From assembly GCF_024172085.1 (NCBI RefSeq), contig NZ_JAMZDZ010000001.1, forward strand, positions 2,418,001 to 2,482,000: a DNA stretch of 64,000 bases, written 5' to 3'. Each line of letters starts with the position of its first letter. The first letter of the stretch is position 1. The notes under the pieces are model-generated. The model had not been told where the DNA came from and did no database searches. It saw only the letters and a program-made list of their open reading frames with translations. This document shows positions 1 through 64,000 of the stretch, in pieces. The translations under genes were made by a program, and so were the position numbers. The stretch comes from Hamadaea flava (GTDB lineage Bacteria; Actinomycetota; Actinomycetes; Mycobacteriales; Micromonosporaceae).

Positions 1-47
1 CAAGCGTTTCTCGGTCACATCCTAAAGATAGCTTTAGAAAGAAGTCT

Positions 48-485
48 CTACAATATGCGGGACACCTCGTCGACGTGTTCGCGCAGGTAATCGGCCAGCT
101 CCGGCGGGAACAGCCGGCAGTCCGTCAGCGCCTCCTTCGTGAGCGGGATCCGCTCGACGGCGTACTCGCCCTTCGACGGGTCGCTGAACTCCGGGCCGTG
201 CCGCTTGGCGAAGTCCAGTGAGATCAGCCGGGCGGCGAACAGGTGCTGCAACGGCGACTTGCCATCGGCGTACGGGGTCTCGCGGCTGGTCAGCAGGACC
301 GGCTCGCCGATCTCCGCCTTCATCTCCTCGTCCAGCTCCCGGCGCAGCGCCGCGACGAGGTCGGCGTCCTCCGGCTCGACACCGCCGCCGGGCAACGCCC
401 AATAGACCGGTACGCCCGGCCGCTGCCGCCGGAACACCACCAGGTTGTCACCTTCCAGCAGAGCTGCGCGTACGCGTTCCTTCAT
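48..485 (-). CDS. Nudix hydrolase
   Basis: Read leftward from the ATG at 483-485; 145 aa. The Nudix box spans residues 33-54: GGGVEP is followed by RRELDEE, which supplies the RE..EE metal-binding core. The first Glu of the consensus G-x5-E is displaced by two residues, so the box is slightly degenerate. The family hydrolyses nucleoside diphosphates linked to another group; the substrate cannot be told. An in-frame start further out (581) would run through the start of the divergent oxidoreductase and was rejected. Only 17 bases separate the two start codons, so both genes must be driven from overlapping control DNA. Confidence 0.85.
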   Translation of the reverse strand: MKERVRAALLEGDNLVVFRRQRPGVPVYWALPGGGVEPEDADLVAALRRELDEEMKAEIGEPVLLTSRETPYADGKSPLQHLFAARLISLDFAKRHGPEFSDPSKGEYAVERIPLTKEALTDCRLFPPELADYLREHVDEVSRIL

Positions 486-502
486 GCGCTGAGTCTGGCA
501 CG

Positions 503-1522
503 ATGATCCATGTGCGGGTAGGAATAGCCGGATACGGCGTCGCTGGGCGGATCTTCCACGGCGGGCTGCTCCGGCAGACACCGGCGGCCGAAGTGGTCGC
601 GGTGGTGACCCGGAACCCGGACCGCCGGGCCGAGGTCGCCGCCGACTTCCCGGCCGCCGCCGTCCGGGACGACCTGACCGGGATGCTCACCGACGACCGG
701 CCCGACCTCGTCGTGCTCGCGACGCCGACACGATTCCACGCCGATCTTGCTCTGGAGTGTTTTGCCTCGGGCGTACCGGTCGTGGTGGACAAGCCCATGG
801 CGCTGGACGCCGAACAGGCCCAGCAGATGGTCACCGCGGCCGAAGTCGCCGGCGTCGCCTTCACGCTCTTCCAGAACCGGCGCTGGGACAGCGACTTCCT
901 GACCGTGCGGCGGCTGATCGCCGAACACGAACTGGGCGAGGTGCTGCGCTTCGAGTCTCGGTTCGAACGGTGGCGGCCCGAGCCCTCGCCCGGCAGATGG
1001 CGCGAAGACCTCCCGCCGGACGAAGGCGGCGGCTCGCTGCTCGATCTGGGCAGCCACCTCGTCGACCAAGCCGTTCAACTGCTCGGACCCGTCCACTCCG
1101 TGTACGCCGAAGTCGCGTCCCGGCGCGGCACCGCGGCCGACGACGACGTCTTCCTCGCGCTGACCCACCTCGGCGACGTCCACTCACACCTGTCCTGCGG
1201 CAACCTCGCCGGCGCGCCCGGACCACGGATGCGCGTACTCGGGAGCGGTGGGGCGTTCGTCGTCCACGACCTCGACGGGCAAGAGGAGGCGCTGCGTACC
1301 GGGCGGCGGGTGGTCACCCCGGTCGGCCGACTGTGCCGAGGCGCCGAGTTCACGCCGGTCGAACCGACCCCCGGCGACTGGGCCTCCTACTACCCGGCCG
1401 TCTTCGCCGCCGTCGAAAGCGGCAGCCCGATGCCGGTCGACCCGTGGGACGGCGTACACACGATGGAGGTGCTGGACGCCGCCCGCGCGTCGGCCGCCTC
1501 CGGCTCCACCGTCTCCCTGTAG
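503..1522 (+). CDS. Gfo/Idh/MocA family NAD(P)-dependent oxidoreductase
   Basis: 339 aa from ATG 503. The N-terminus has the dinucleotide-binding glycine motif GIAGYGVAG (residues 7-15). DKP at residues 96-98 matches the conserved E/DKP of the family, whose Lys takes part in catalysis. The C-terminal half has the expected sheet domain (GGGSLLDLGSHLVDQ). Members oxidise or reduce sugars, inositols or related polyols; no neighbour indicates a substrate. It is divergent from the Nudix gene. A longer open frame reaching back to 218 exists, but it would read antisense through that gene. Confidence 0.88.
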   Translation: MIHVRVGIAGYGVAGRIFHGGLLRQTPAAEVVAVVTRNPDRRAEVAADFPAAAVRDDLTGMLTDDRPDLVVLATPTRFHADLALECFASGVPVVVDKPMALDAEQAQQMVTAAEVAGVAFTLFQNRRWDSDFLTVRRLIAEHELGEVLRFESRFERWRPEPSPGRWREDLPPDEGGGSLLDLGSHLVDQAVQLLGPVHSVYAEVASRRGTAADDDVFLALTHLGDVHSHLSCGNLAGAPGPRMRVLGSGGAFVVHDLDGQEEALRTGRRVVTPVGRLCRGAEFTPVEPTPGDWASYYPAVFAAVESGSPMPVDPWDGVHTMEVLDAARASAASGSTVSL

Positions 1523-1613
1523 CCCCGCTGCTTCCCCGCTGCTTCCCCGCTGCTTTCCGCGCGGCTTCCCCGCTGGTTCCCCCGCTGCTTTCCCGCTGCT
1601 TTCCCGCTGCTTT
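1523..1613. repeat. Short tandem repeat, about nine copies of an 11-12 base unit
   Basis: Directly after the oxidoreductase stop, the unit CCCCGCTGCTT recurs with small variations (TCCCGCTGCTT, CCCCGCTGGTT, TCCGCGCGGCTT). It runs into the 89-bp dispersed repeat that follows. It is not coding. Confidence 0.85.
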
Positions 1614-1698
1614 CCGCGCGATCATGAACTATCGGTCGTGATCGACCGGCGTGTCGCGTCCCTAGCACCCTGATCGTTCCCGCGACGGACTGATCAAC
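1610..1698 (+). repeat. 89-bp dispersed repeat, copy 1
   Basis: Aligns without gaps to the reverse complement of 24137-24225. The first 66 bases differ at six positions (about 91% identical) and the remainder is weaker, giving about 82% overall by hand count. Each copy contains several TGATC/GATCA words. It lies between two same-direction genes. Confidence 0.85.
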
Positions 1699-1722
1699 AT
1701 CAAGAGTGTCGTACCCCGGCGA

Positions 1723-1728
1723 TACTTT
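1723..1728 (+). promoter_or_regulatory. -10 box TACTTT, leaderless start of the DinB-like gene
   Basis: TACTTT ends six bases before the GTG start at 1735, and no purine-rich ribosome site is present. This is the actinobacterial leaderless arrangement TANNNT followed by 6-8 bases and the start codon. Confidence 0.5.
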
Positions 1729-1734
1729 CGTGAG

Positions 1735-2211
1735 GTGTTTTCACCGCTCACCGACGACCGCACTCCGTCGTCCGTCGTGACCGGCCTGGTCGACGACGTG
1801 CTCGCCCTCGCCGAGACCTGGCCCGCCTGGGACGGCACGCCCCGCCCCTCCGGCGACCGCGTCTACACGCCGCACAAGGCGATCCGGCGCGTCGCGGACC
1901 ACCTCGTCGATCACCTCGCCGAGCTGGAGGCGACCCTGGCCGGCGTCGACCCGCTGCCCGATCACTGGCATGCCTCAGCCGTCACGACGGCGGCGGATCT
2001 GGCCGAGTTCACCGCCGAGGATCTGGCCGAGGCGCGCAGCCGGCTGACCCGGCTGGCCGAGATCTGGCGGCTGCGGCTCGACTCGCTGACCGACGAGGAA
2101 CTGGACAAGAGCACCGGCGGCTGGTCGCCTCGGGAGCTGGCTTTCCACGTCGCCGAGTCGGTCTATTACGCCGAGGTGGTGGGCAACTTGGCACCGAGAA
2201 CGCCCGCCTAG
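1735..2211 (+). CDS. DinB-like four-helix protein
   Basis: 158 aa from GTG 1735. The pattern fits the DinB/mycothiol-transferase-like superfamily: a helical N-terminus with HKAIRRVADHLVDHL, where His residues could bind metal, and a last helix with ELAFHVAESVYYAE. In Actinobacteria such proteins are often thiol transferases or of unknown role. The start is supported by a TACTTT box six bases upstream. It is followed at 47 bases by tex. Confidence 0.6.
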   Translation: MFSPLTDDRTPSSVVTGLVDDVLALAETWPAWDGTPRPSGDRVYTPHKAIRRVADHLVDHLAELEATLAGVDPLPDHWHASAVTTAADLAEFTAEDLAEARSRLTRLAEIWRLRLDSLTDEELDKSTGGWSPRELAFHVAESVYYAEVVGNLAPRTPA

Positions 2212-2258
2212 CGTGTCCCGGCGCGGCGGAGGGCCGACCGACCGGGCAGAATGCACCG

Positions 2259-4703
2259 GTGACAACCGACGCCCAGACCACCGCTCCGACCGTGCCGCAG
2301 CCCCGGATCGCCGCTCAGATCGCCACCGAGCTCGGCGTACGCGAAGGGCAGGTGACCGCGGCCGTCGATCTGCTCGACGGTGGCGCCACCGTGCCGTTCA
2401 TCGCCCGGTACCGGAAGGAGGTCACCGGAGCGCTCGACGACGCCCAGCTGCGTACGCTCGAGGAGCGCCTGCGCTATCTGCGGGAGCTGGAGGAGCGCCG
2501 GGCGGCCATCCTGGAGTCGATCCGGTCGCAGGGCAAGCTCGACGACGCACTGCAGGCGCAGATCCTCTCCGCCGACACCAAGGCCCGGCTGGAGGACATC
2601 TACCTGCCGTTCAAGCCGAAGCGGCGGACCAAGGCGCAGATCGCCCGGGAGGCGGGGCTGGAGCCGCTGGCCGACCAGCTGCTCGGCGACCCGACGCTCG
2701 ATCCGGTCGCGACCGCGTCCGGCTATCTGACCGAGGCGGTCGCCGACGCGGCGGCGGCGCTCGACGGCGCCCGCGCGATCCTCATCGAACGGTTCTCCGA
2801 GGACGCCGACCTCATCGGCGAACTGCGGGAGCAGGTCTGGAACCGCGGCCTGCTCGCGTCGAAGGTACGCGACGGCAAGCAGGAGGCCGGCGCGAAGTTC
2901 GCCGACTACTTCGACTTCTCCGAGCCCTTCACGAAGATGCCGTCGCACCGCGTACTGGCGATGTTCCGGGGTGAGAAGGAGGAGATGCTCGACATCGCGG
3001 TCCAGCCCGAGGCGCCCGAGGACGCCCCGGAGTTCGGCCCGACCCGGTTCGAGCAGCTCATCGCCCGCCGCGTCGGCGTCTCCGACCAGGGTCGCCCGGC
3101 CGACAAGTGGCTCTCCGACACCGTCCGGTACGCGTGGCGTACGCGGATCCTGACGCACCTCGGCATCGACGCGCGGATGCGGCTGTGGCAGCAGGCCGAG
3201 GAGGAGGCGGTTCGGGTGTTCGCCGCGAACCTGCGCGACCTGCTGCTCGCCGCCCCGGCCGGGACGCGGGCGACGCTCGGTCTCGACCCCGGTTTCCGCA
3301 CCGGCGTGAAGGTGGCCGTCGTCGACGCCACCGGCAAGGTCGTCGCGACCCACACGATCTACCCGCACGTCCCCCACAACAAGTGGGACGAGTCGGTGGC
3401 GATCCTGGCCCGGCTCTGCCAGGTGCACCAGGTGGAACTCGTCGCCATCGGCAACGGCACCGCCTCCCGGGAGACCGACAAGCTGGCCGCCGACCTCATC
3501 AAGCTGTATCCGCAGCTCAACCTGACGAAGATCGTCGTCTCCGAGGCCGGCGCGTCGGTCTACTCCGCCTCGGCGTACGCCTCGTCCGAGCTGCCGGGGA
3601 TGGACGTGTCGCTGCGTGGCGCGGTGTCGATCGCCCGGCGCCTGCAGGACCCGCTGGCCGAACTCGTGAAGATCGATCCGAAGTCGATCGGCGTCGGGCA
3701 GTACCAGCACGATCTCGCCGAGGGCAAGCTGTCCCGGTCGCTGGACGCCGTGGTCGAGGACTGCGTGAACGGCGTCGGCGTGGACGTGAACACCGCGTCG
3801 GCTCCCCTGCTCACCCGGGTCTCCGGGATCACCGAGAGCCTCGCGAAGAACATCGTCGCGTACCGGGAGGAGAACGGGCCGTTCCGCAACCGCCGGACGT
3901 TGCAGCAGGTGCCCCGGCTCGGGCCGAAGGCGTTCGAGCAGTGCGCCGGCTTCCTGCGTATCCGCGGCGGCGACGACCCGCTGGACTCCTCCAGCGTGCA
4001 CCCGGAGGCGTACCCGGTCGTGCGGCGCATGCTCGACGGCGAGGGCGCCACGATCGACACGCTCATCGGCAACTCGACCGCGCTGCGCAAGATCAAGCCC
4101 ACGGCGTACGTGGACGACACGTTCGGTCTGCCGACCGTCACCGACATCCTGAAGGAACTGGAGAAGCCGGGCCGGGACCCGCGACCGGCGTTCAAGACGG
4201 CGACCTTCGCCGACGGCGTCGAGAAGATCTCCGACCTGGTTCCCGGCATGCTCCTGGAGGGCGTGGTGACCAACGTCGCCGCGTTCGGGGCCTTCGTCGA
4301 CGTCGGCGTCCACCAGGACGGCCTCGTCCACGTCTCGGCGCTGTCGAAGACCTTCGTCAAGGACCCGCGCGACGTCGTGAAGTCCGGCGACGTCGTACGC
4401 GTCAAGGTGCTCGACGTCGACGTACCCCGTAAGCGGATCTCGCTGACGCTGCGCCTCGACGACGTCCCCGGCGACGGGGCCGGCTCGGGCGGCGGGCAGT
4501 CCCGCGACCGGGGGCCCCGGCAGCCGGGCGGCCAGCGCCAAGGCGGACAGGGGGGCCAAGGCGGCCAGGGCGGCCAGCGTCAGGGCGGCCAAGGCGGGCA
4601 GCGCGGTGGGCAGCAGGGCGGTCAGCGTGGTGGCGGTCGTCAGCAGGGCGGCAGCACGGATACCGCGCTCGCCGACGCGCTGCGCCGAGCCGGCCTCGCC
4701 TGA
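2259..4703 (+). CDS. tex: Tex family transcription accessory protein, S1 RNA-binding
   Basis: 814 aa from GTG 2259. In order: the Tex N-terminal helical region (PFIARYRKEVTGALDD, LEDIYLPFKPKRRTKAQIA), a YqgF/RNase H-like domain starting near residue 338 (LGLDPGFRTGVKVAVVD), helix-hairpin-helix repeats at about 510-570 (NTASAPLLTRVSGI, VPRLGPKAFEQC), and an S1 domain at about 660-733 (GMLLEGVVTNVAAFGAFVDVG). The last 80 residues are a low-complexity Gly/Gln/Arg tail built of GGQ units, an actinobacterial-style extension likely to be disordered and RNA-binding. Tex binds nucleic acid and acts on transcription complexes. Confidence 0.95.
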   Translation: MTTDAQTTAPTVPQPRIAAQIATELGVREGQVTAAVDLLDGGATVPFIARYRKEVTGALDDAQLRTLEERLRYLRELEERRAAILESIRSQGKLDDALQAQILSADTKARLEDIYLPFKPKRRTKAQIAREAGLEPLADQLLGDPTLDPVATASGYLTEAVADAAAALDGARAILIERFSEDADLIGELREQVWNRGLLASKVRDGKQEAGAKFADYFDFSEPFTKMPSHRVLAMFRGEKEEMLDIAVQPEAPEDAPEFGPTRFEQLIARRVGVSDQGRPADKWLSDTVRYAWRTRILTHLGIDARMRLWQQAEEEAVRVFAANLRDLLLAAPAGTRATLGLDPGFRTGVKVAVVDATGKVVATHTIYPHVPHNKWDESVAILARLCQVHQVELVAIGNGTASRETDKLAADLIKLYPQLNLTKIVVSEAGASVYSASAYASSELPGMDVSLRGAVSIARRLQDPLAELVKIDPKSIGVGQYQHDLAEGKLSRSLDAVVEDCVNGVGVDVNTASAPLLTRVSGITESLAKNIVAYREENGPFRNRRTLQQVPRLGPKAFEQCAGFLRIRGGDDPLDSSSVHPEAYPVVRRMLDGEGATIDTLIGNSTALRKIKPTAYVDDTFGLPTVTDILKELEKPGRDPRPAFKTATFADGVEKISDLVPGMLLEGVVTNVAAFGAFVDVGVHQDGLVHVSALSKTFVKDPRDVVKSGDVVRVKVLDVDVPRKRISLTLRLDDVPGDGAGSGGGQSRDRGPRQPGGQRQGGQGGQGGQGGQRQGGQGGQRGGQQGGQRGGGRQQGGSTDTALADALRRAGLA

Positions 4704-4765
4704 TCCCCCGCCGCTGCGCCTCGCCCGAGGTCCCCGCTGCCGCGCTGACCGGCATACGTTTCCCA

Positions 4766-4824
4766 GCAGATCACGGATAAGCAGGCCAAAACCGGCCAAG
4801 ATCCCATGCGTATCCGTAATCTGC
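4766..4824. repeat. Intergenic hairpin, family A copy 1
   Basis: Arms GCAGATCACGGATA (4766-4779) and TATCCGTAATCTGC (4811-4824) pair with one mismatch, and a smaller GGCC/GGCC hairpin sits in the loop. There is no T-tract. It is followed at 4829-4856 by two perfect copies of AAAGCGGGCCGCGG. The right arm contains an ATG that opens a false extension of the downstream kinase frame. Confidence 0.85.
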
Positions 4825-4880
4825 CCGAAAAGCGGGCCGCGGAAAGCGGGCCGCGGAGTGGGGAATGGGAGACTGACCGC

Positions 4881-5984
4881 GTGGGGTTGGAGGTCTCGCT
4901 CTGGCGGGCGGTCGCGGTCTTCCGGTTCGCCGCGTTGGCGTACGCCGTCGTCCTGCTCGCCACCGGCCGGGGCGAATACCTCCGACCGTGGTTGGGACTG
5001 GGCGTCGTCGTCGTGATGCTCATCTGGTCGGTCGTCGCGGCTGTCGCGTACGCCGAACCCGCCCGGCGACGCTGGCCGTTGCTCAGTGCCGACATGCTCG
5101 TCACGCTGGGCTGTCTGTTCGCCAGTTCGTGGGTCGTGGACCCGGCCCGGTTGAGCCAGGGCGCCGCGACACTGCCGATGGCGTGGGTCGCCGGGGCCGT
5201 GCTCGCCTGGGCCATCGCGGGCGGCCGCCGCTGGGGCCTGTTCGCGGCGTTGCTCGTCGGCGCGGTGGACCTGACTCTCCGCGGCCGGGTCACTCCGACG
5301 ACGCTCAACGGGACCGTCTTGTTGCTGCTGGCCGGGTTCAGCATCGGCTATCTCGTCCGCCTCGCCGGTGAGGCCGAGTTGCGGTTGCAGCACGCGGCCG
5401 AGTTGGAGGCGGCGACCCGGGAACGGGAGCGGCTGGCCCGTGGCATCCACGACTCCGTCCTGCAGGTCCTCGCCTTGGTTCAGCGGCGAGGCGCGGAGAT
5501 CGGCGGTGAGGCGGCCGAATTGGGCCGGCTCGCCGGGGAGCAGGAGGAGGTCCTGCGGTCCCTCGTCGGGAACGCGCCGCACGCGCCCACCTCGGACAGC
5601 GGAGTGGATCTCAAGGCGCTGCTGAGCACGCAGACCTCGAATCGCGTCACGGTGAGCGGCCCGGCGACGCCGGTCTGGCTCCCGGAGCAGATCGCCGACG
5701 AGATCGCGGCGGCAACCGCGAGCGCCCTGGACAACGTCCAACGACACGGTGGGCCTGGCGCGCGCGCCTGGGTTCTGCTGGAAGAGGAGGATTCCGAGGT
5801 GATCGTGACCGTACGCGACGACGGGGCGGGCATCGCGCCCGGCCGCCTGGCCGAGGCCGCGGCGGCCGGCCGGCTCGGCGTCGCGCAGTCCATCGAGGGA
5901 CGCGTACGCGATCTCGGCGGGGCCACCGTCATCACCAGCGCACCGGGGGAAGGAACCGAGGTCGAGATGCGGGTACCGAGATGA
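4881..5984 (+). CDS. Two-component sensor histidine kinase (MacS/DUF5931-like)
   Basis: 367 aa from GTG 4881. The N-terminal third is a membrane domain of about five hydrophobic segments with short loops and no large sensory domain, suggesting that it senses the membrane or is regulated by a partner. His190 lies in RGIHDSVLQ, the HisKA_3 signature of the NarL-partner class. The ATPase domain follows (N box ALDNVQRHG, G box VRDDGAGIAPG). An in-frame ATG at 4806 was rejected because it lies inside the family A hairpin. The stop overlaps the next gene's ATG (ATGA), so this is a kinase-regulator operon. Confidence 0.88.
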   Translation: MGLEVSLWRAVAVFRFAALAYAVVLLATGRGEYLRPWLGLGVVVVMLIWSVVAAVAYAEPARRRWPLLSADMLVTLGCLFASSWVVDPARLSQGAATLPMAWVAGAVLAWAIAGGRRWGLFAALLVGAVDLTLRGRVTPTTLNGTVLLLLAGFSIGYLVRLAGEAELRLQHAAELEAATRERERLARGIHDSVLQVLALVQRRGAEIGGEAAELGRLAGEQEEVLRSLVGNAPHAPTSDSGVDLKALLSTQTSNRVTVSGPATPVWLPEQIADEIAAATASALDNVQRHGGPGARAWVLLEEEDSEVIVTVRDDGAGIAPGRLAEAAAAGRLGVAQSIEGRVRDLGGATVITSAPGEGTEVEMRVPR

Positions 5985-6631
5985 CGACGCGCGTAATGGT
6001 GGTCGACGACCATCCGATGTGGAGAGAGTCGGTGGCGCGGGACCTCGCCGAGGCCGGTTACGACGTCATCGCGGCCGTCGGCGACGGCGCCCAGGCCGTA
6101 CGCGTCGGGACGTCGTTGCGCCCGGACGTCGTCGTCCTCGACCTGCAACTGCCCGACCTGTCCGGCGTCGAGGTCATCACCGCGTTGTGCAAGGGCGATA
6201 CCCCTGTACGCATCCTGGTGCTCTCGGCCAGCGGCGAGCACCAGGACGTCTTGGACGCCGTCAAGGCGGGCGCGACCGGATACCTCGTCAAGTCGGCCGG
6301 ACGTGACGAATTCCTGACCGCCGTTGCGCGTACCGCTGAAGGAGACGCCGTGTTCACGCCGGGCCTGGCCGGACTCGTGCTGGGCGAGTACCGGCGGCTG
6401 GCGTCGTCGCCCGCGGACGGCGACGACACGCCGCGCCTGACCGAGCGCGAGACCGAGATCCTGCGGTTGGTCGCGAAGGGCTTGTCCTACAAGCAGATCG
6501 CGGAGCGACTGGTCTTGTCGCCGCGGACCGTGCAGAACCACGTGCAGCACACGCTGGGCAAACTCCAGCTCCACAATCGAGTGGAGCTGGTCCGCTACGC
6601 GCTGGAGCGCGGCCTCGACACCGACGGCTAG
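5981..6631 (+). CDS. LuxR/NarL-type response regulator
   Basis: 216 aa. The receiver domain has the acidic pair VVDDHP, phosphoacceptor Asp54 (VVLDLQLPDLSG) and Lys in YLVKSAG. The C-terminal LuxR helix-turn-helix is at about 145-205 (LTERETEILRLVAKGLSYKQ). It overlaps the kinase by 4 bases and is its obvious partner. Its target may include the convergent ABC operon, but nothing in the sequence shows this. Its TAG stop shares the palindrome CTAG (6628-6631) with the stop of the gene on the other strand. Confidence 0.92.
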   Translation: MTTRVMVVDDHPMWRESVARDLAEAGYDVIAAVGDGAQAVRVGTSLRPDVVVLDLQLPDLSGVEVITALCKGDTPVRILVLSASGEHQDVLDAVKAGATGYLVKSAGRDEFLTAVARTAEGDAVFTPGLAGLVLGEYRRLASSPADGDDTPRLTERETEILRLVAKGLSYKQIAERLVLSPRTVQNHVQHTLGKLQLHNRVELVRYALERGLDTDG

Positions 6632-24136: not shown

Positions 24137-24225
24137 GTTGATCACCCGGTGAGGGAGTTGATCAGGGCGCTGCGGACACGACACGCCGGTTGATCACGAC
24201 CGTTAGTTCATGATCGCGCGGAAAG
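24137..24225 (-). repeat. 89-bp dispersed repeat, copy 2
   Basis: Reverse-complement match to 1610-1698, same length, no gaps, about 82% identity overall and about 91% over the first 66 bases. It lies between the DUF6158-like gene and the 3' end of the MacB-like permease. The 176-base gap also contains three TTGATCA words. Confidence 0.85.
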
Positions 24226-24258
24226 CCACGGGAGGCGAGCGGGGGCGGAGGGGTGGGG

Positions 24259-56498: not shown

Positions 56499-57746
56499 AT
56501 GAATAGATGGAAAAGTCTGATAGCTGTGACAGCGTTGACCGCCGGCGTCCTCACCGCGCCGCCGGCCGCGCTGGCCGCACCGGTGACGAGCGCGGTCTTC
56601 AACGATCCGACCGGCACCACCGCCGAGAAGACGCAGCTACAGAACAAGATCGTCGAGTTGATCAGCACCGCCCCGACCGGGTCGCGGATCCGGATGGCGA
56701 TGTACTACGCCGACGACGCGACCATCCCGAACGCCTTGATCACGGCACACCAGCGCGGGGTGAACGTTCAGGTCGTCTTCGACGGGCGGGAGACCGCCGA
56801 AACGCTGTGGCCCTCGTTGACCGCCGAACTGGGCGTGTCGCTGAGCGCGGCGAGCTGGGCGCTGGCCTGCCCGGCCGGGCGCGGCTGCATCGGCAGTCGC
56901 GTACTCGGGAACGTGGACTCCATCAACCACAACAAGTTCTTCCTCTTCTCCAGCACCGGCGGGGCGTCGAACGTCGTCGTGCAGTCGTCGGCGAATCTCC
57001 ACAACGGACGTGACGGGCTGGGCGGCTGGAACAACGCGCTGATCCTGGTCGGCAACACCGCGGCGTACAACTACTACAGCGCGTACTTCGACGACCTGAA
57101 GGGGCGGGTCGTCAACAACAACTACTACGACACGCGTACGCCGCTCCAGGCCGGCAATTCCAAGATCTTCTTCTATCCGCGTCAGGAGCAGTCGGGGACG
57201 AGCCCCTATCAGAATCCGGCCGAGGACACGATCTACACCATCCTGTCCAATGTGGATTGCTTCGGGAACTCCGTCGTCGGTACGCAGGACGGCACCCACC
57301 GGACGATCATCCGGGTCGCCATGAGCATGTTCTCCCGGGACTACCTGGCGAAGAAGCTCTGGGACCTGGACGCGGCGGGCTGCTACGTCGAGGTCGTGGA
57401 GACCTACCACCCGGGCTCCGACCTGGAGGTCAGCGCGATGAAGAAGCTGCTGGCCGCCGCGGGCGGCTACCACGGGCCGGCGGTCAAGTACTACTGCGAC
57501 ACCGACTCGATCTGGATCCACTCGAAGTACTTCGAGGTCGAGGGCGTCTACTACGGCAAGGCCGACCGCAAGATCGTGTGGACGGGCAGCCACAACTGGA
57601 CCACGAACTCCCTGCGGCAGGCCGACGAGGCCATCCTGCAGCTGGAGGACGCCACGGTGTTCGACGCGTACACGGCGAACTTCCGGCAGATCCGGGACAG
57701 CGCGACGATCCGGTCCGTCGCCAACGGCGGCGCAGCCGGCTGCTGA
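56499..57746 (+). CDS. Secreted phospholipase D-family protein
   Basis: 415 aa from ATG 56499. Signal peptide cut near ALA-APVTS. Two PLD half-sites: His144/Lys146 (INHNKFFLFS) and His341/Lys343 (WIHSKYFEV with GSHNWTTNSLRQADE), both complete enough for the HKD two-step mechanism. Five or six Cys suggest disulfides outside the cell. Could cleave phospholipid or nucleic acid; the family does both. No operon partner. Confidence 0.88.
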   Translation: MNRWKSLIAVTALTAGVLTAPPAALAAPVTSAVFNDPTGTTAEKTQLQNKIVELISTAPTGSRIRMAMYYADDATIPNALITAHQRGVNVQVVFDGRETAETLWPSLTAELGVSLSAASWALACPAGRGCIGSRVLGNVDSINHNKFFLFSSTGGASNVVVQSSANLHNGRDGLGGWNNALILVGNTAAYNYYSAYFDDLKGRVVNNNYYDTRTPLQAGNSKIFFYPRQEQSGTSPYQNPAEDTIYTILSNVDCFGNSVVGTQDGTHRTIIRVAMSMFSRDYLAKKLWDLDAAGCYVEVVETYHPGSDLEVSAMKKLLAAAGGYHGPAVKYYCDTDSIWIHSKYFEVEGVYYGKADRKIVWTGSHNWTTNSLRQADEAILQLEDATVFDAYTANFRQIRDSATIRSVANGGAAGC

Positions 57747-57748
57747 CC

Positions 57749-57814
57749 GCGTTGATCATGGAGTTTCCGGTCCCGACACACCGTCGAGACCATGGTCAAC
57801 TCCATGATCAACGC
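57749..57814. repeat. Intergenic hairpin, TTGATCATGG family (copy at 57.8 kb)
   Basis: Perfect 17-base arms, GCGTTGATCATGGAGTT (57749-57765) and its complement (57798-57814), plus an inner GGTC/GACC. Between convergent genes, three bases after the phospholipase stop. Confidence 0.93.
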
Positions 57815-57825
57815 CCAAGCGGGGG

Positions 57826-60273
57826 TTAGGAGCGGATGCGGGTGTGGGTGGGGTCGTAGAGCGGGCGGAGGGAGACACGGGCGGGCTGGATCGAGCCCGC
57901 GATCTCCACGCTCCACTCGGCGTCGTCCAGGTACGCGGCGGTGACCGGACGGTCGGCTTCGACCATCGCGAGGCCGACCGCGCCGCCGACGGTGAACCCG
58001 TAGGAGGCGGCGCGCACATACCCGACCGGTACGCCGTCCCGCCGCAGCACCTCGCCGTGGAAGAGCAGCGGCTTGGGGTCGCTGAGGAGCACCTGGACGA
58101 GCCGTCGGTGCGGCGTACCGGCCTCCTTCAGCGCCAGCGCAGCGGAACGGCCGACGAACGAGGGCTTGTCCAGGGCCACGGCGAAGCCGAGTCCCGCCTC
58201 GTACACGTTGTCGGTGTTGTCGATGTCGTGGCCGTAGTCCCGGTAGCCCTTCTCCATCCGCAGGCTGGACAGCGCCTTCAGGCCCGCGTGCACGAGGCCG
58301 TGCCGCTCCCCCGCCGCGACGAGCCGGTCGTAGACGTGCAGCGCCTGTTCGGCCGGAATGTACAGCTCGTAGCCGAGTTCGCCGAGGTAGGTGATCCGGA
58401 TGCAGAGGACCCGGGCGAAGCCGAGGTCGATCTCCTGCGCGGCCCGATAGGGAAACGCCTCGTTCGACATGTCCGCCGACGTCACGTCGGCCAACAGCGC
58501 GCGGGACAGCGGTCCCTGGATGTTGATCTGCGCGTACGCCCCGGTGACGTCGGTGACGAAGGCGTGCGAGTCGGAGCAGAACCGCTGCAACCGGGTCAGC
58601 ACGTGCCGATGCGCGGTGTCGCTGGCGACCACCCAGAACCGGTCTTCGGCGAGGCGGGTCACCGTGAGGTCGGCTTCGAGGGTCGCGCCCTCGTTGAGCC
58701 ACTGCGTATAGGTCAGCAGGCCGTCCTCAGTGGAGACACGGTTGGCCGACAGCTCTTCGAGCACGGCTCCGGCGTCGCGCCCCTGCACGAGGAACTTCGC
58801 CATGAAGCTCATGTCCATGAGGATCACGCCCTCGCGGGCCGCCTTGTGCTCGGCTTCCCAATAGGGGAACCAGTTCTGCCGCCCCCAGGACAGCTCTTCG
58901 ACGACCGGCTCGACGCCGGGCGGGGCGTACCAGTCGGGGCTCTCCCACCCGCTGACGTCCTTGAAGTACGCACCCTTCGCCGCCAGTCGCGAGTGGAACG
59001 GCGACACCTTGGCACCCCGGGCGGTCTGCATCGAGCGACCCGGATAGTGCGTCTGATACACCATGCCCAGCGATTCGACCGTACGCGTCGCCCGGTACTC
59101 CGGGTTCCGCTGGTAGGGGTGCAGCCGATCGATGTTGACGCCGGTGACGTCCCAGTCGGGGCGGCCGTCGACGATCCACTGCGCGACCGCCCGGCCGAGC
59201 CCGCCGCCGGTCAGGATGCCGATCGAGTTCAGCCCGGCGGCCACGAAGTAGTTCCGCAGTTCCGGGGCCTCGCCGATGATGGGCGCGAGGTCGGGCGTGA
59301 ACGATTCGGGCCCGCAGAAGAACTTCTTGACGCCCCGGTCGAGGGTGATCGGCACCCGCCGCATCGCCTTCTCCAGGTACGGCCCCATCCGCTCCCAGTC
59401 CGGGGGCAGTTCGCCGAAGGAGAAGCCGTCCGGGATGCGCCCGACGTTCCACGGCGCGCACTCGGTCTCGAACAGGCCGACCATCAGGCCGGCGCCCTCC
59501 TCGCGGTAGTACCCGTAGGACGACGGGTCCTCCAGCACGGGCAGGTCGCCGTGCACCTCCGCGATCGGCTCGGTGATCAGGTAGTAGTGCTCGGCCGCCT
59601 GGAGCGGGATGTTCACCCCGGCCAGTTCGCCCAGTTGGCGGGCCCACATGCCGGCCGCGTTCACCACGTACTCGGCTTCGATGTCGCCTTCCGGTGTGCG
59701 TACCCCTTGAATTCGACCATGGGACGTGCGAAAGCCGGTGACCGGAAGTCCCTCGATGATCTTGACTCCGCGCTGGCGCGCGCCCTTGGCGAGCGACATG
59801 GTCACGTCGACCGGATTGACCCGCCCGTCGTCGGCGACGTAGAACCCCGCGAGCAGGTCCTCCGTGCGCGCGAGCGGGAACAGCTCGTGGATCTCGCGCG
59901 GCGAGATCTCCTGGACGTCGACCCCGAGCAGGCGGTTGAAGGCCGCGACCCGGCGGTACTCCTCCAGCCGCCCCTCGTCCGCCGCGACCTCGATGAACCC
60001 GACCTGCTTGAGGCCCGTGGCCAGCCCGGTCTCCGCCTCCAGGTCGCGGTAGAGGTCCCGGCTGTACTGCCGCCAGCGGGTCGACGTCTCCGACATCGAC
60101 CCGAACGTCACCATCAGGCCCGCGGCGTGCCACGTCGTCCCGGACGTCAGTTTGTCGCGCTCCACCAGCACCACGTCGGTCCAGCCGAGCTTCGCCAAGT
60201 GGTACGCGATACTGGTGCCGACGACGCCGCCACCCACGACGACGACCTGGGCCCTGTCCGGAATGCGCGACAT
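57826..60273 (-). CDS. Dimethylglycine/sarcosine dehydrogenase-like flavoprotein (FAD + GcvT domains)
   Basis: 815 aa from ATG 60273. N-terminal FAD oxidase domain: VVVVGGGVVGTSIAYHLAKLG, His in SGTTWHAAGL (covalent-FAD position in relatives), ILTGGGLGRAVAQWI. C-terminal half is a GcvT/aminomethyl-transferase domain (TEDGLLTYTQWLNEGATLEA, GYELYIPAEQALHVYDRLVA, RMEKGYRDYGHDI), which passes the C1 unit to tetrahydrofolate. It demethylates N-methylglycines or similar. No other betaine-pathway gene is next to it. Confidence 0.9.
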   Translation of the reverse strand: MSRIPDRAQVVVVGGGVVGTSIAYHLAKLGWTDVVLVERDKLTSGTTWHAAGLMVTFGSMSETSTRWRQYSRDLYRDLEAETGLATGLKQVGFIEVAADEGRLEEYRRVAAFNRLLGVDVQEISPREIHELFPLARTEDLLAGFYVADDGRVNPVDVTMSLAKGARQRGVKIIEGLPVTGFRTSHGRIQGVRTPEGDIEAEYVVNAAGMWARQLGELAGVNIPLQAAEHYYLITEPIAEVHGDLPVLEDPSSYGYYREEGAGLMVGLFETECAPWNVGRIPDGFSFGELPPDWERMGPYLEKAMRRVPITLDRGVKKFFCGPESFTPDLAPIIGEAPELRNYFVAAGLNSIGILTGGGLGRAVAQWIVDGRPDWDVTGVNIDRLHPYQRNPEYRATRTVESLGMVYQTHYPGRSMQTARGAKVSPFHSRLAAKGAYFKDVSGWESPDWYAPPGVEPVVEELSWGRQNWFPYWEAEHKAAREGVILMDMSFMAKFLVQGRDAGAVLEELSANRVSTEDGLLTYTQWLNEGATLEADLTVTRLAEDRFWVVASDTAHRHVLTRLQRFCSDSHAFVTDVTGAYAQINIQGPLSRALLADVTSADMSNEAFPYRAAQEIDLGFARVLCIRITYLGELGYELYIPAEQALHVYDRLVAAGERHGLVHAGLKALSSLRMEKGYRDYGHDIDNTDNVYEAGLGFAVALDKPSFVGRSAALALKEAGTPHRRLVQVLLSDPKPLLFHGEVLRRDGVPVGYVRAASYGFTVGGAVGLAMVEADRPVTAAYLDDAEWSVEIAGSIQPARVSLRPLYDPTHTRIRS

Positions 60274-60281
60274 GGACGCAG

Positions 60282-60287
60282 AGTGTA
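60282..60287 (-). promoter_or_regulatory. -10 box TACACT, leaderless start of the dehydrogenase
   Basis: On the minus strand TACACT ends eight bases before ATG 60273. Confidence 0.45.
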
Positions 60288-60349
60288 GCCGGGGATTCTC
60301 TCGGGCGAGCCGCAAGGAGTGCAGTCAGCCCGCACACAGGCAGTCGGGA

Positions 60350-60355
60350 TATCTT
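60350..60355 (+). promoter_or_regulatory. -10 box TATCTT, leaderless start of the 123-aa gene
   Basis: TATCTT ends seven bases before ATG 60363. Confidence 0.5.
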
Positions 60356-60362
60356 CATCGAC

Positions 60363-60734
60363 ATGGACGAGAACCGAGCCCGGCGCGTCGTCGACGCGCT
60401 CCGCGATCGAGGCGTCCCCGCCCACCTGTCCCTCGGCGGCGGCTTCCGCAAGGTCGGCGTACGCATCGCGCTGCCGGACGGCCGCGAGGCGCTCTGGGAC
60501 ACCGACGGCACCGCCGGACTGGAGGCGCAAGTGCTCCGGGACGGGATGCTGGTCGGCTTCGTGCCGCACATCGACGGCTCCGAGGACTTCACCGAGGAGC
60601 AGGTCGTCGACGCGATCGCCCGCACCGACTACGACCAGCCGGTGGCGCGGCAGCGCAAGGAGGCGCCACCGCCGGACCGGCCGCTGCCGATGGAAGGCGG
60701 CTTCTTCCGCCGCTTCCGCGACGGTTTCCGCTGA
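60363..60734 (+). CDS. Small protein of unknown function
   Basis: 123 aa from ATG 60363. Not recognised. It has a mixed alpha/beta look (VVDALRDRGVPAHLSLGGGF, VRIALPDGREALWDTDGTAG, GFVPHIDGSEDFTEEQVVDA) with a basic C-terminus (GGFFRRFRDGFR) that may touch membrane or nucleic acid. No signal peptide or membrane segment. Codon use fits the genome, and the leaderless promoter box supports expression. Divergent from the dehydrogenase. Confidence 0.7.
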   Translation: MDENRARRVVDALRDRGVPAHLSLGGGFRKVGVRIALPDGREALWDTDGTAGLEAQVLRDGMLVGFVPHIDGSEDFTEEQVVDAIARTDYDQPVARQRKEAPPPDRPLPMEGGFFRRFRDGFR

Positions 60735-60747
60735 GGCCCCGGCTGCG

Positions 60748-61092
60748 TCAGTCGCCGAACGCTTTGGCGGAGACGACGCGCAGCCTGCCGTCCTGACCCG
60801 GCATCCGGGGAGCGCGGTACTCGACGTACAGCTGAGCGCCGACGCCCACGGTGACCGCGGCTTCGGCGGGGGCGTACTCCTTGGTGGGGGCGCCGGTGCC
60901 GGCTCGGGGGACGACGGCGACCCGGACACGGTGGGGACCGGCCGGGACCGGCACCGCCTCAGGCGCCCAGCTCACGACGGTACGCCGGACGCCGTCGACG
61001 ACGAGGACCGGAACTGTGTCCTTGTAGGAGCGTGCGACCGCCCAGGAGGGCCTGGTGAAGGTCATCCGCAGGACACCCTGACCTAGCGACAT
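60748..61092 (-). CDS. Small beta-rich protein of unknown function
   Basis: 114 aa from ATG 61092. Not recognised. Alternating hydrophobic strands (TVPVLVVDGVRRTVVSW, PHRVRVAVVPRAGT, AAVTVGVGAQLYVEYRAP) suggest a small beta sandwich. No signal peptide. An open frame extends much further upstream but over the divergent lipoprotein gene. Convergent with the 123-aa gene, 13 bases between. Confidence 0.6.
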   Translation of the reverse strand: MSLGQGVLRMTFTRPSWAVARSYKDTVPVLVVDGVRRTVVSWAPEAVPVPAGPHRVRVAVVPRAGTGAPTKEYAPAEAAVTVGVGAQLYVEYRAPRMPGQDGRLRVVSAKAFGD

Positions 61093-61154
61093 GCCAATAC
61101 TGTCCCACTTTGATGCAGTACGCGCAGGGCAAGCGCGCAAAGCATGTCGCGCCC

Positions 61155-61160
61155 TACAGT
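61155..61160 (+). promoter_or_regulatory. -10 box TACAGT, leaderless start of the lipoprotein
   Basis: TACAGT ends seven bases before ATG 61168, which supports this start over the ATG at 61144. Confidence 0.5.
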
Positions 61161-61167
61161 GGCGCCC

Positions 61168-61596
61168 ATGCGAATGCCGATCTCGGTCGCGCGCTGGGCG
61201 GCACTGCTGACGCTGCTCGGCGGATGCGCCTGTTGCTGCGGAAACTGGGCGCCGATCGGCCCCTCTCCGGACATCGAGGCGGCCGACGTCGTCGGGACGT
61301 GGGTCAGCGATGAAGGCGCACGTATCACCCTTAACGGTGACATGACGTTTCGGACCGAGGGCCTCGCGAAATGCCTGGAAGGCGAGGAAGGCAGCGGAAG
61401 CAGCGCGGGCGGCGGCGGGGCGGGCACCTGGTCGCTGGGCGATCCGGAGACCCTCGACCCCTATCAGGACCTCCTGCTCAAGTACGCCCCCTACGGCGAG
61501 CATCTGCAGACGTGGCGGGCCCAGGAGGACGAGATCGTCTATCTGTGGGGCGACACCGACAACAGCGAGATCTGTTTCTTCGAACGCGGCGAATGA
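61168..61596 (+). CDS. Lipoprotein of unknown function
   Basis: 142 aa from ATG 61168. Signal with lipobox LLGGC, followed by an unusual Cys cluster (CACCCG), so several Cys follow the lipidated one. The mature part has a lipocalin-like opening (VVGTWVSDEGARITLNGDMT) and ends in EIVYLWGDTDNSEICFFERG; a glycine-serine loop sits between. Probably a small surface-anchored beta protein. No function assigned. Confidence 0.7.
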   Translation: MRMPISVARWAALLTLLGGCACCCGNWAPIGPSPDIEAADVVGTWVSDEGARITLNGDMTFRTEGLAKCLEGEEGSGSSAGGGGAGTWSLGDPETLDPYQDLLLKYAPYGEHLQTWRAQEDEIVYLWGDTDNSEICFFERGE

Positions 61597-61620
61597 TCGG
61601 GTGATCGAAATCACGCGATC
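61595..61620 (+). terminator. Hairpin overlapping the lipoprotein stop
   Basis: GATCGGGTGAT pairs ATCACGCGATC with one mismatch and a CGAA loop; no T-run. The rest of the gap to 61822 shows several GATC words and nothing coding. Confidence 0.55.
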
Positions 61621-61822
61621 TGTCCGGATTAGATGATCGCCGATCCTGCCTCGGCGGGCCGGTCGATCACGACGGCCACGCAGCGGCAGGTGGTGGCCCG
61701 TATTCCGGCGGCCCGCCGACAGGCGCCCGACCGCGCTTCACCGGTTCGGCGGACAAAAGGGTACGCATCGGCAGCGTGATCGACGGCGAGTCCACTGGCG
61801 GACCCTTCTGAGCTGCACAACG

Positions 61823-63172
61823 ATGAGAGGGGTGGAGCAAGCCAGCACAGAAGATCACGATCATCAACCCGTCGACCTCGACCGGCTTCGGCGTACCGCT
61901 GAAACGGTTCTGCGAGGCAACTGGTCCGGCGACCACATGGTCCCCTCCCGGACCCTCTACCCCCATCAATGGAGCTGGGACGCGGCGTTCATCAGCATCG
62001 GACTCGCCCACGTCGCCCCCGACCGAGCCTGGCGCGACCTGCGCAGCCTCTTCACGGCGCAGTGGCCGGACGGTCGCGTACCGCACATCGTCTTCGACCC
62101 GGGCGTGAACGAGAAGGACTATTTCCCCGGCCCCGCCTTCTGGGACGTGCCGCCGCTACCCGGCGGGCCGAGCCACATCCGCACGACCGGCATCGTCCAG
62201 CCGCCGGTGCACGCGCTCGCCGCCCGGATGATCCACCGGGTCGCTCCGGACGCGGAGGAGCTGCGCTGGCTCTATCCGCGCCTGGTGGCCCAGCAGGAGT
62301 ACCTGCTCAAGCACCGCGACGCGGGCGGAGCAGGGCTGGCCAGCATCGTGCACCCCTGGGAGTCCGGTCTGGACAACAGCCCGTCCTGGGACGACGCCCT
62401 GGCCCAGCTGCCCGCCGACGTCCGGGTGCTCGACCGGTATCAGCGCCGCGACGTGCAGGTCTCGGTCGCCACCCACCGGCCGACGAATGCCGACTATGCC
62501 CGGTACATCGCGTTGGCGGCGTCCTATCGCGACAACGGCTACCAGGACTTCGATCTGCTCGAACGGCACGGTTTCGTGGTCGAGTGCCCAGCCTTCAACG
62601 CGCTGACCGCCGACGCGGAACTGGCGCTGGCCGAGATCGCCGCGGTCGTCGGGGCCGACCCGGGCCCCCATCGGGAACGGGCCGCCGGCATCACCCAGGC
62701 CATGATCGAGCGCCTCTACGATCCCGAGACCGGCTTGTTCCACACGCTCGATGTGCGTACCGGCAAGCGATCGAAAGCCCGCTGTGTCAACGGCTTGATG
62801 CCGCTGATCCTGCCGGGACTGCCCGCGAGGGTCGCGGCGTCGCTGGCCGATCAGGCCGCCTCCGCGCGCTTCGGGCTCAGCCCCGTGCCGGTCCCGAGCT
62901 ATGACCGCACGGCGCCGGACTTCGACCCGCTGCGCTACTGGCGCGGCCCGGTCTGGATCAACGTGAACTGGCTGCTGCGCCGCGGCTTCGCCGGGCACGG
63001 GTACGCGGCCGAGGCCGAGGCCCTGCGCCAGGCGATGCTGTCGGTGGTGGACCGCTCGGGATGCTTCGAGTACTTCCATCCCACGACCGGCGAGGGCATC
63101 GGGACGCCGGAGTTCAGCTGGACCGCCGCGCTGATCCTGGATCTCCTCGCGATACCGCGAACGCACCCCTGA
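61823..63172 (+). CDS. GH63/MGH-like glycoside hydrolase
   Basis: 449 aa from ATG 61823; GTG 61832 is an alternative, neither with a strong ribosome site. An (alpha/alpha)6-barrel enzyme of the mannosylglycerate/glucosylglycerate hydrolase type: YPHQWSWDAAFISIGLAH, HPWESGLDNSPSWDDAL, YWRGPVWINVNWLLRRG, FEYFHPTTGEGIGTPEFSWT. The Asp in SWD and Glu near TGEG are candidate catalytic acids. No signal peptide, so it may hydrolyse a compatible solute inside the cell (inference). Confidence 0.85.
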   Translation: MRGVEQASTEDHDHQPVDLDRLRRTAETVLRGNWSGDHMVPSRTLYPHQWSWDAAFISIGLAHVAPDRAWRDLRSLFTAQWPDGRVPHIVFDPGVNEKDYFPGPAFWDVPPLPGGPSHIRTTGIVQPPVHALAARMIHRVAPDAEELRWLYPRLVAQQEYLLKHRDAGGAGLASIVHPWESGLDNSPSWDDALAQLPADVRVLDRYQRRDVQVSVATHRPTNADYARYIALAASYRDNGYQDFDLLERHGFVVECPAFNALTADAELALAEIAAVVGADPGPHRERAAGITQAMIERLYDPETGLFHTLDVRTGKRSKARCVNGLMPLILPGLPARVAASLADQAASARFGLSPVPVPSYDRTAPDFDPLRYWRGPVWINVNWLLRRGFAGHGYAAEAEALRQAMLSVVDRSGCFEYFHPTTGEGIGTPEFSWTAALILDLLAIPRTHP

Positions 63173-63179
63173 GAGACGG

Positions 63180-64000
63180 CTACCGGCCCGACAGCACTGT
63201 CGCTGGGGTGGCGGTCAGCCACTCCAGCGCCTGCTCCGCCGACAACGGCGGGGAGAACAGGAAGCCTTGGCCGTAGCGGCAGCCGAACCGGGCGAGCATG
63301 TCGCGTTCGGACGGTCGCTCGATGCCTTCGGCGATGACCTGCAGGCCGAGCGTCTGGGCGAGCCGGATGATTCCGTCGACCAGCACCGCCTGCTGGCCGG
63401 ACGAGGCGATCGTACTGGTGAACAGCCGGTCGATCTTGAGGGCGTCGAGCGGGACGTGCCGCAGGTAGCTCAGGGACGAGTAGCCGGTGCCGAAGTCGTC
63501 GATGGCCACCCTGATGCCGGCTCGCCGCAGTTCGACGAGGTCGTCCCAGATCTGGTCGTCGTCGCGCAGCAGCAGGCTCTCGGTGATCTCCAACAGGAGC
63601 CGGTCGGGAGGCACGCCGGCGTCGGCCACCGCTCGGCGTACGCCGGCGACGAAGCCGGGCGATCGGAACTGGTGGACGGAAACGTTGATGCTCACGTACG
63701 GCGCGTCCCGGGTGGCCCGCTGCCACGCCGCGGCCTCGGCGAGCGCCTGGCGCAGCACCCAGGTGCCCATCGGCACGATGAGCCCGCTCTCCTCGGCGAC
63801 CTCGATGAAGTTGTCCGGCAGCAGCCGGCCGCGTTCGGGGTGCTCCCAGCGGACGAGGGCTTCGAAGCCGGCGGTCAGCCCCGAGCGCAGGTCGACGATC
63901 GGCTGGTACTCCAGGGTGAGCGCACCCGCCGCGACGGCCTCGTCCAACGCGGCTCGCAGTTCCAGCCGGCGCACCATCGCCGTGTGCAACGACGGGTCGT
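63180..64000 (-). CDS. EAL-domain cyclic-di-GMP phosphodiesterase, partial
   Basis: The gene is read leftward and its 5' part lies beyond the window end; 272 codons are visible. The EAL domain appears complete: GFEALVRWEHP, NFIEVAEESGLI, VSINVSVHQF, LLLEITESLLL, AIDDFGTGYSSLSYL, ALKIDRLF, VIAEGIE. The metal and catalytic residues (Glu of EAL, Asn, the Glu of EITES, DD, Lys, Glu) are present, so it should hydrolyse c-di-GMP. The frame stays open to the edge (DPSLHTAMVRRLELRAAL), as in GGDEF-EAL fusions. Confidence 0.92.
   Translation of the reverse strand, partial: DPSLHTAMVRRLELRAALDEAVAAGALTLEYQPIVDLRSGLTAGFEALVRWEHPERGRLLPDNFIEVAEESGLIVPMGTWVLRQALAEAAAWQRATRDAPYVSINVSVHQFRSPGFVAGVRRAVADAGVPPDRLLLEITESLLLRDDDQIWDDLVELRRAGIRVAIDDFGTGYSSLSYLRHVPLDALKIDRLFTSTIASSGQQAVLVDGIIRLAQTLGLQVIAEGIERPSERDMLARFGCRYGQGFLFSPPLSAEQALEWLTATPATVLSGR

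What the first reader, a model, noticed from the sequence alone, without database searches (positions are those of the whole stretch)
1..64000. A highly iterated GCGTACGC-like word used in all three codon phases
The core GTACGC/GCGTAC, often the full palindrome GCGTACGC, is seen every few hundred bases throughout the window. It is read in every codon phase. In tex alone it occurs as GTA-CGC (Val-Arg, 2337-2342), CGT-ACG (Arg-Thr, 2451-2456) and GCG-TAC-GCC (Ala-Tyr-Ala, 3573-3581). GTA for Val and CGT for Arg are otherwise avoided in this GC-rich sequence yet are chosen where they complete the word. That points to selection or mutation bias acting on DNA rather than protein, as with the cyanobacterial HIP1 word GCGATCGC. 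Rough expectation for GTACGC at 70% GC is about 20 per strand in 64 kb; I judged the excess by eye and did not count. I know of no described function in actinomycetes.
Basis: partly seen in the sequence, partly recalled or inferred. Interest (0 to 1): 0.75.

Follow-up and report, generated by a model that had tools for sequence, protein, structure and literature searches.

The report
Polar iterated word in actinomycete DNA
This actinomycete-like bacterium's chromosome is peppered about every 300 bases with the six-letter word GTACGC (GCGTAC on the other strand), held in place against the usual codon preferences and accompanied by a one-sided tail, which suggests that some unidentified DNA-handling machine reads it.

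Summary
In the window's called genes GCGTACGC occurs 37 times against 6.7 in a codon-preserving shuffle, in excess in all three phases. GCGTAC/GTACGC is the most enriched hexamer in 464 kb of the genome (1348 against 397). The unit is not the palindrome but the polar hexamer: each base of GTACGC is enforced against every synonymous alternative tested, with a G-poor, C-rich stretch of about 16 nt mainly on its 5' side and a polar exclusion zone of about 45 bp for a second word. Words persist between species without a clear slowing of flank mutation. The genus's four genomes are extreme; some relatives carry weaker dialects. HIP1, run through the same tests, behaves differently, and none of four methyltransferase families tested is shared by the four genomes. 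I read it as a selected recognition element for a DNA-processing machine, most like Chi. The lack of strand bias speaks against Chi, and the reader protein is unknown.

The parts
1..64000 (.). Whole window: 130 GTACGC and 139 GCGTAC on the + strand, 45 of them overlapping as GCGTACGC; 224 distinct GTAC cores, one per about 286 bp; 12-23 words per 4 kb throughout
   Evidence: counts; per-4-kb counts; codon-shuffle test
2337..2342 (+). GTACGC read as GTA-CGC (Val-Arg) in the ORF 2259-4703
   Evidence: sequence; ORF
2451..2456 (.). CGTACG read as CGT-ACG (Arg-Thr)
   Evidence: sequence; ORF
3573..3580 (.). GCGTACGC read as GCG-TAC-GC (Ala-Tyr-Ala): two overlapping words of opposite orientation
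   Evidence: sequence; ORF

Best explanation
A chromosome-wide, polar recognition element: the hexamer GTACGC with a roughly 16-nt G-poor, C-rich stretch on its 5' side (on the other strand 5'-GCGTAC-3' followed by a C-poor, G-rich 3' tail). Thousands of copies are kept by weak selection because a sequence-specific DNA machine reads each one from one side. Shown here: the word, its six enforced positions, the tail, the polar exclusion, interspecies conservation, the genus-level intensity and the dialects. Inferred: that the force is selection, and that there is a reader protein. I hold the general claim (a selected, protein-read polar element) at about 0.7; the confidence below is for the Chi-like version.
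For: All 32 synonymous single-base departures tested (16 for each strand orientation) are depleted, odds 2.8-54; the two bases on either side are constrained far less, though T next to the word is nearly absent in three of four comparisons. The tail is tied to word orientation: GTACGC-only sites left +0.324, right -0.105; GCGTAC-only sites right +0.305, left -0.169; palindromes +0.08 on both; GTAC with neither extension 0.04 and 0.01. Its edge lies at -16/-17. Pairs 6-16 bp apart: divergent 2 against 85 simulated, tandem 35 against 196, convergent 53 against 106, where far pairs run at 0.61-0.66 of simulation. Words conserved to sister G039 142 of 173, against 39-67% for eight control hexamers. 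Low density in islands: 6 of 64 own-genome 20-kb stretches are under 2 words/kb, against a median of 3.8; three of those six were fetched because they carry methyltransferases, and L078 holds a TraG-like gene. A C-rich tail also accompanies GTACGC in Streptomyces, Micromonosporaceae and Streptosporangiaceae loci. E. coli Chi is over-represented and core-genome-rich, with variants in other Proteobacteria (PMC8022716, passages read); that its 3' flank matters is recalled.
Against: No replication-strand bias: 2240 words on the leading and 2339 on the lagging strand (origin placed only from GC skew), whereas polarity is a criterion used for Chi. Density, 3.2-4.3 words per kb in the four genomes, is far above one Chi per 5 kb in E. 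coli. In G012 the enriched core is GTAC with broad flanks, a palindrome, and there the composition shifts on both sides, awkward for a strand-read signal. In Streptomyces the tail goes with GTACGC (z 4.3) but not with GTACG (z 1.4), which is enriched in all 19 Streptomyces loci. In g11+g32+G169 C is in excess on both sides. Presence of AdnAB or RecBCD was not tested. No reader has been identified.
Confidence: 0.3

Rival explanations
1. A double-strand DNA-binding protein (nucleoid-associated protein) occupies the word; about 30-45 bp around each site are covered, so two sites too close cannot both be used. YbaB/EbfC, whose Borrelia member binds GTnAC (recalled), is a lead.
For: Exclusion range of about 45 bp, with a mild deficit even of convergent pairs below 46 bp (0.46-0.57 of simulation against 0.61-0.65 far); footprint edges at -16 and about +13; no replication or coding-strand bias; GT-AC core. 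Papers holding both EbfC and GTnAC are listed (listing and abstract starts only).
Against: The one-sided tail and the much stronger exclusion of divergent and tandem pairs need an asymmetric complex; YbaB was not searched for in these genomes; no occupancy data.
Confidence: 0.22
2. A DNA-transfer or uptake drive: fragments carrying the word are taken up or transferred and recombined preferentially, as for DNA uptake sequences of Neisseria and Haemophilus.
For: Short core with one-sided flank, dialects between genera, no strand bias, low density in islands.
Against: Redundancy acts only within about 45 bp, not at fragment scale; natural competence is not established for such actinomycetes (recalled).
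Confidence: 0.14
3. A HIP-type effect: a DNA methyltransferase that recognises part of the word, coupled to mismatch repair, creates and keeps the sites (Elhai's model).
For: Iterated GC-rich word around a 4-bp palindrome; Elhai states that every cyanobacterial genome with HIP sequences has a methyltransferase predicted to recognise part of them (PMC4390886, parts 1, 4 and 5 of 8 read).
Against: No shared methyltransferase: PF01555 in 1 of 4 genomes (7 matches, 6 over the cut-off, all inside four G000 stretches with 0.9-1.8 words per kb), PF02384 in 1 of 4, PF02086 in 1 of 4, PF00145 in 2 of 4; Vsr in 1 of 4. Other classes untested, and G080 is 87% complete. HIP1 needs the full palindrome and lacks the tail.
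Confidence: 0.12
4. Context-dependent mutation or repair bias without function.
For: Background 6-mer biases of about 1.3-1.8 fold exist in the genomes; word counts vary widely and without clear gaps among the other genera.
Against: All six positions, transitions and transversions alike, are enforced; effects reach 16-45 bp; flanks of words conserved to G039 are not slow-mutating (0.268 against 0.274 further out), which argues against simple shielding.
Confidence: 0.17

Closest known systems
HIP1 (GCGATCGC) and alternate HIPs of cyanobacteria
   Same: Short GC-rich word repeated genome-wide in coding DNA, several- to many-fold above codon-preserving expectation, lineage-limited
   Different: HIP1 needs the full 8-bp palindrome (O/E 15-17; of six one-sided forms five are at 0.5-1.3 and GCGATCGG at 3.4, on small counts), no C-rich 5' tail; linked to methyltransferases (PMC4390886), not so here in four families tested
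Chi sites (GCTGGTGG and lineage variants)
   Same: Short non-palindromic word, over-represented, poor in recently acquired DNA, variable between lineages; 3'-flank dependence (recalled)
   Different: No leading-strand bias; roughly 20-fold denser than E. coli Chi; enzyme not shown
DNA uptake sequences (DUS/USS)
   Same: Iterated core with one-sided flank, dialects between related genera (recalled for DUS/USS)
   Different: Shorter core, redundancy only within about 45 bp, no known competence
KOPS/SRS of FtsK/SpoIIIE
   Same: Short polar words
   Different: Those are strongly co-oriented with replication (recalled); this is not

Membership tests
HIP (highly iterated palindrome) | Enriched unit is the palindrome itself | tested here: not met
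   GCGTACNN elevated for all nine NN tested (1.9-5.1); log odds of completing the palindrome 1.98 against 2.7-3.2 at 45-1000 bp
HIP (highly iterated palindrome) | Cognate DNA methyltransferase in each genome that has the word | tested here: inconclusive
   None of PF01555, PF00145, PF02384, PF02086 present in more than 2 of 4 genus genomes, which speaks against a shared one; specificities unknown, Eco57I-type PF07669 and other classes not tested; G080 is 87% complete
HIP (highly iterated palindrome) | Large genome-wide excess over codon-preserving expectation | tested here: met
   GCGTACGC 597 against 119 in 1.24 Mb (phases summed)
Chi site | Non-palindromic over-represented word | tested here: met
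Chi site | Enriched in core, poor in acquired DNA | tested here: met
   6 of 64 own-genome stretches under 2 words/kb against a median of 3.8; density correlates with GC at 0.77; three of the six were fetched for methyltransferases; a TraG-like gene shown in L078 only; core genes as such were not defined
Chi site | Leading-strand polarisation | tested here: not met
   2240 leading, 2339 lagging
Chi site | Alters a helicase-nuclease (AdnAB/AddAB/RecBCD) | not testable with these tools
   needs biochemistry
DNA uptake sequence | Preferential uptake of word-bearing DNA | not testable with these tools
   needs an uptake assay
KOPS/SRS | Strong co-orientation with replication | tested here: not met

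The most novel reading that the evidence does not exclude
A previously undescribed class of chromosome-wide signal in Actinobacteria: a polar word (GTACGC in this genus; GTACG in one genome each of g11, g32 and g30 and in several Streptomyces; GTAC in one g13 genome) with a one-sided 16-nt tail and a polar exclusion zone, read by an unidentified DNA machine whose specificity has drifted between genera.
Probability: 0.45. Interest if true: 0.88.

Novelty: new variant of a known kind. Interest (0 to 1): 0.73.

Why it matters
HIP1 is still without an agreed function (Elhai calls the relation to its methyltransferases a mystery). Here is an independent iterated word with richer anatomy (direction, tail, exclusion range, dialects across genera with and without it), so its reader can be hunted by comparison and by simple pull-down. 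If it is Chi-like it would be a recombination signal for actinomycetes; if not, it points to another genome-wide DNA-reading system. It also distorts codon choice: in the window GTA is the main Val codon before CGC (41 of 64).

Tried and rejected
Octamer as the unit: rejected. Codon-pair or translational cause: rejected, all phases and DNA outside called genes. Replication or transcription polarity: none (coding-strand GTACGC 648 against 200.5, GCGTAC 700 against 203.8). Regular spacing: no, counts per kb near Poisson (Fano 0.90; mean core spacing 317 bp) with a deficit only under 40 bp. Hairpin or cruciform: no consistent complementarity between the two flanks; single positions deviate both ways, from z -5.5 to +3.7. 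Mutation shielding by bound protein: flank four-fold divergence not reduced in the best-sampled pair. Conserved methyltransferase or Vsr: none found. Artefact of a strongly enriched word in the exclusion test: an independent-site Gibbs simulation shows no such exclusion (counts, whose simulation has 7805 words against 5981 real).

Results that cut against me: GATCGC among the controls is nearly as conserved as the word when amino acids are conserved (0.87 against 0.92 to G039; 0.93 against 0.98 to G080; 0.75 against 0.79 to G061). Flank divergence is lower than background in two small samples (G080 +6..+14 17/109 = 0.156 against 0.225; G061 -16..0 30/79 = 0.380 against 0.451) and higher in another (G061 +6..+14 28/44 = 0.636). 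Convergent pairs are also mildly short below 46 bp. The tail in g11+g32+G169 is weak for GTACGC (z 2.2) and not clearly one-sided; in Streptomyces it is absent for GTACG. Left-right tail correlation is negative in the controls too. In g11+g32+G169 completing the palindrome is not favoured at all (odds 1.0). G080's first 20-kb sample gave only 1.59-fold, 2.51-fold with more DNA.
Full report
What was checked. The three cited sites exist as written and lie in frame in an ORF at 2259-4703. The window is bases 2,418,001-2,482,000 of an 8,864,410-bp single-contig genome, G000.

Excess. I called 42 genes in the window with a simple codon-usage caller (72% of bases, so some genes are missed). Shuffling synonymous codons within each gene keeps protein and codon counts. 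Against that, GCGTACGC is 37 against 6.7 and is in excess in every phase (13/16/8 against 5.9/0.4/0.4), while HIP1's GCGATCGC is 7 against 6.0. In 464 kb of the genome (359 genes, 364,140 nt) GCGTAC/GTACGC ranks first of all hexamers, 1348 against 397, rank 1 of 2080 in a second shuffle run on the same genes, and rank 1 also in G039, G061 and G080. In 1.24 Mb (L005 left out) the octamer is 249/203/145 by phase against 103.2/7.9/7.9. Stretches outside called genes (54.6 kb) hold 132 against 31 or 45 expected; some missed coding DNA may be included.

The unit is a polar hexamer. For each base of the word that falls on a synonymous site I compared base choice when the other five bases match with choice in the same codon box and next base elsewhere. 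All 32 alternatives tested (16 for each of GTACGC and GCGTAC on the coding strand) are depleted, with odds from 2.8 to 54; some rest on few counts. The two bases on either side are constrained far less, apart from a near-absence of T next to the word in three of four comparisons. Octamers GCGTACNN are raised for all nine NN tested (1.9-5.1). In G000 eleven other GTACNN hexamers lie at 0.65-1.20; in G061 they reach 1.67.

Tail. At synonymous sites the roughly 16 nt 5' of GTACGC are short of G and rich in C, with an edge between -16 and -17 and a faint extension to about -36; on the 3' side there are base preferences to about +13. The C-minus-G excess in -16..-4 is +0.223 (z 30.4) against -0.001 for the control GATCGC; in +10..+22 it is only +0.040. 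It follows word orientation: GTACGC-only sites +0.324 left and -0.105 right; GCGTAC-only +0.305 right and -0.169 left; palindromes +0.08 each; GTAC with neither extension 0.04 and 0.01. There is no consistent complementarity between the two sides, so I see no sign of a hairpin.

Exclusion. The pressure to complete a word falls when another lies near (odds 5.2 within 20 bp, 14.5 at 20-40, 29-35 at 40-640; control GATCGC flat at 1.1-1.4), and this depends on relative direction. With GC ends facing (convergent) log odds stay 2.6-2.9 from 6 to 46 bp (3.55 at 46-66, 2.8-2.9 beyond). In tandem they rise 0.57, 1.41, 1.97, 2.56, 3.08 over 6-16, 16-26, 26-36, 36-46, 46-66 bp. With GTAC ends facing (divergent) they rise -0.50, 0.75, 1.75, 2.54, 2.54, 3.29 out to 66-120 bp. 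Direct pair counts at 6-16 bp: divergent 2 against 85 in an independent-site simulation, tandem 35 against 196, convergent 53 against 106; pairs at 100-400 bp run at 0.61-0.66 of simulation because it held 7805 words against 5981 real ones. Convergent pairs thus show at most a mild deficit. The counts of a smaller simulation show no exclusion either. I dropped the island locus L005 from the sets.

Evolution. Against sister G039, 142 of 173 aligned words persist (of 155 with conserved amino acids, 0.92), against 39-67% for eight control hexamers (51-87% where amino acids are conserved; GATCGC is the closest). Against G080 it is 56 of 63 (controls 42-75%), and against G061 31 of 71 (controls 6-39%). 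Only reciprocal best pairs of at least 50% identity were used (G039 34 of 34, G080 14 of 14, G061 15 of 17). Four-fold divergence next to words conserved to G039 (-16 to 0) is 121/452 = 0.268, against 0.274 at -120 to -60, so no shielding from mutation shows there; the smaller G080 and G061 samples scatter both ways. Words are rare in islands: 6 of 64 own-genome stretches lie under 2 per kb against a median of 3.8; L078 among them carries a TraG-like gene. No bias to leading (2240) or lagging strand (2339), and none to coding strand (648 against 200.5 and 700 against 203.8).

Distribution. Over 250 family genomes GCGTACGC counts are 3910-6448 in the four genomes of the genus and at most 1885 in the other 246. 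In a phylum draw of 396 genomes, which held only G000 of this genus and one other of its family, the largest count outside the family is 952. Relatives show dialects: G048, G031 and G169 favour GTACG with any next base, and G012 favours GTAC broadly; G171 shows none and G042 is depleted (0.31); G003 is at 1.71. Among named loci of up to 22 kb (75 of 80; five too short or with too little called coding were dropped) GTACGC runs 2.3-2.9 in five Micromonospora, 1.0-1.4 in four Amycolatopsis, and below 1 in all 13 alphaproteobacterial loci; GTACG is 1.1-2.7 in 19 Streptomyces. The tail accompanies GTACGC in Streptomyces (z 4.3), Micromonosporaceae (4.6) and Streptosporangiaceae (3.6), weakly in g11+g32+G169 (2.2), and not in Pseudonocardiaceae, Nocardiopsis or Nocardiaceae loci; with GTACG it is absent in Streptomyces (1.4); in G012 the composition shifts on both sides.

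Comparison with HIP1. I took 200 kb of cyanobacterial plasmid DNA rich in HIP1 through the same code. HIP1 needs the full palindrome (102 against 6-7; of six one-sided forms five lie at 0.5-1.3 and GCGATCGG at 3.4) and has no C-rich tail (-0.034, z -1.1 at -16..-4; -0.210, z -4.5 at -4..0). Elhai's survey (PMC4390886; parts 1, 4 and 5 of 8 read) ties each HIP to a methyltransferase; a term search of its main text found no actinobacteria, Streptomyces or GTAC. Here PF01555 is in 1 of 4 genus genomes, PF00145 in 2, PF02384 in 1 and PF02086 in 1; no family is shared by all. Other methyltransferase classes were not tested.

Reading. Enforcement of all positions, the polar tail and exclusion, and conservation without evident shielding point to selection for being read by a protein. 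Log odds near 3 correspond to a scaled selection of about 3 (population-genetic inference), i.e. tiny per-site effects. Among readers I favour a Chi-like signal for the end-resection enzyme: GCGTAC with a C-poor 3' tail resembles Chi in being non-palindromic, over-represented, poor in acquired DNA and lineage-variable (Buton and Bobay, PMC8022716, passages). That E. coli Chi is tuned by purines on its 3' flank is recalled; the paper was not held. Lack of strand bias, high density and the GTAC dialect speak against it.

Print. Searches for GCGTACGC (209 papers; none of the 20 listed looked relevant by title), GTACGC with Streptomyces (0), HIP1 with Streptomyces terms (0) and highly iterated palindromes with actinobacteria (0) gave no description of this word. 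Searches were loose, with 64, 1,785 and 29,119 papers of which 12, 8 and 8 were listed; no listed row held the word, so they say little. The library holds open-licence papers only.

Changes on checking: numbers and scopes were mended throughout, and the methyltransferase test is now marked inconclusive because specificities and other classes are untested.

Noticed in passing
window ~1601-1700 (a copy also at 24160-24233): A dispersed repeat of about 90 bp: 22 BLAST rows in 64 other own-genome 20-kb stretches and one elsewhere in the window, and dozens of 73-94% identical copies listed in sister genomes G039 and G080 but none in the listed rows of G061 (list cut); folds into strong stems. REP/MITE-like.
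   Followed up: partly
window 1523-1620: Short direct duplication of 41 bp (95% identical; 1523-1563 and 1580-1620) beside the dispersed repeat.
   Followed up: no
G000:C1 2265001-2285000 (L079): Methyltransferase-rich low-word island: two PF01555 matches and a truncated C5 methyltransferase with a stop.
   Followed up: partly
G039:C56:246745-248281: C5 methyltransferase next to a Vsr gene; Vsr was found only in this genome of the four.
   Followed up: no
G000, about 4.5 Mb: GC skew changes sign near the middle of the contig (negative in most stretches to the left, positive in most to the right, with exceptions), as in a chromosome with a central origin.
   Followed up: no
g1 words, +24 to +84 bp: A weak, broad G-over-C excess extends to about +84 on the 3' side of GTACGC, unexplained; it might reflect DNA wrapping or an extended contact.
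   Followed up: no
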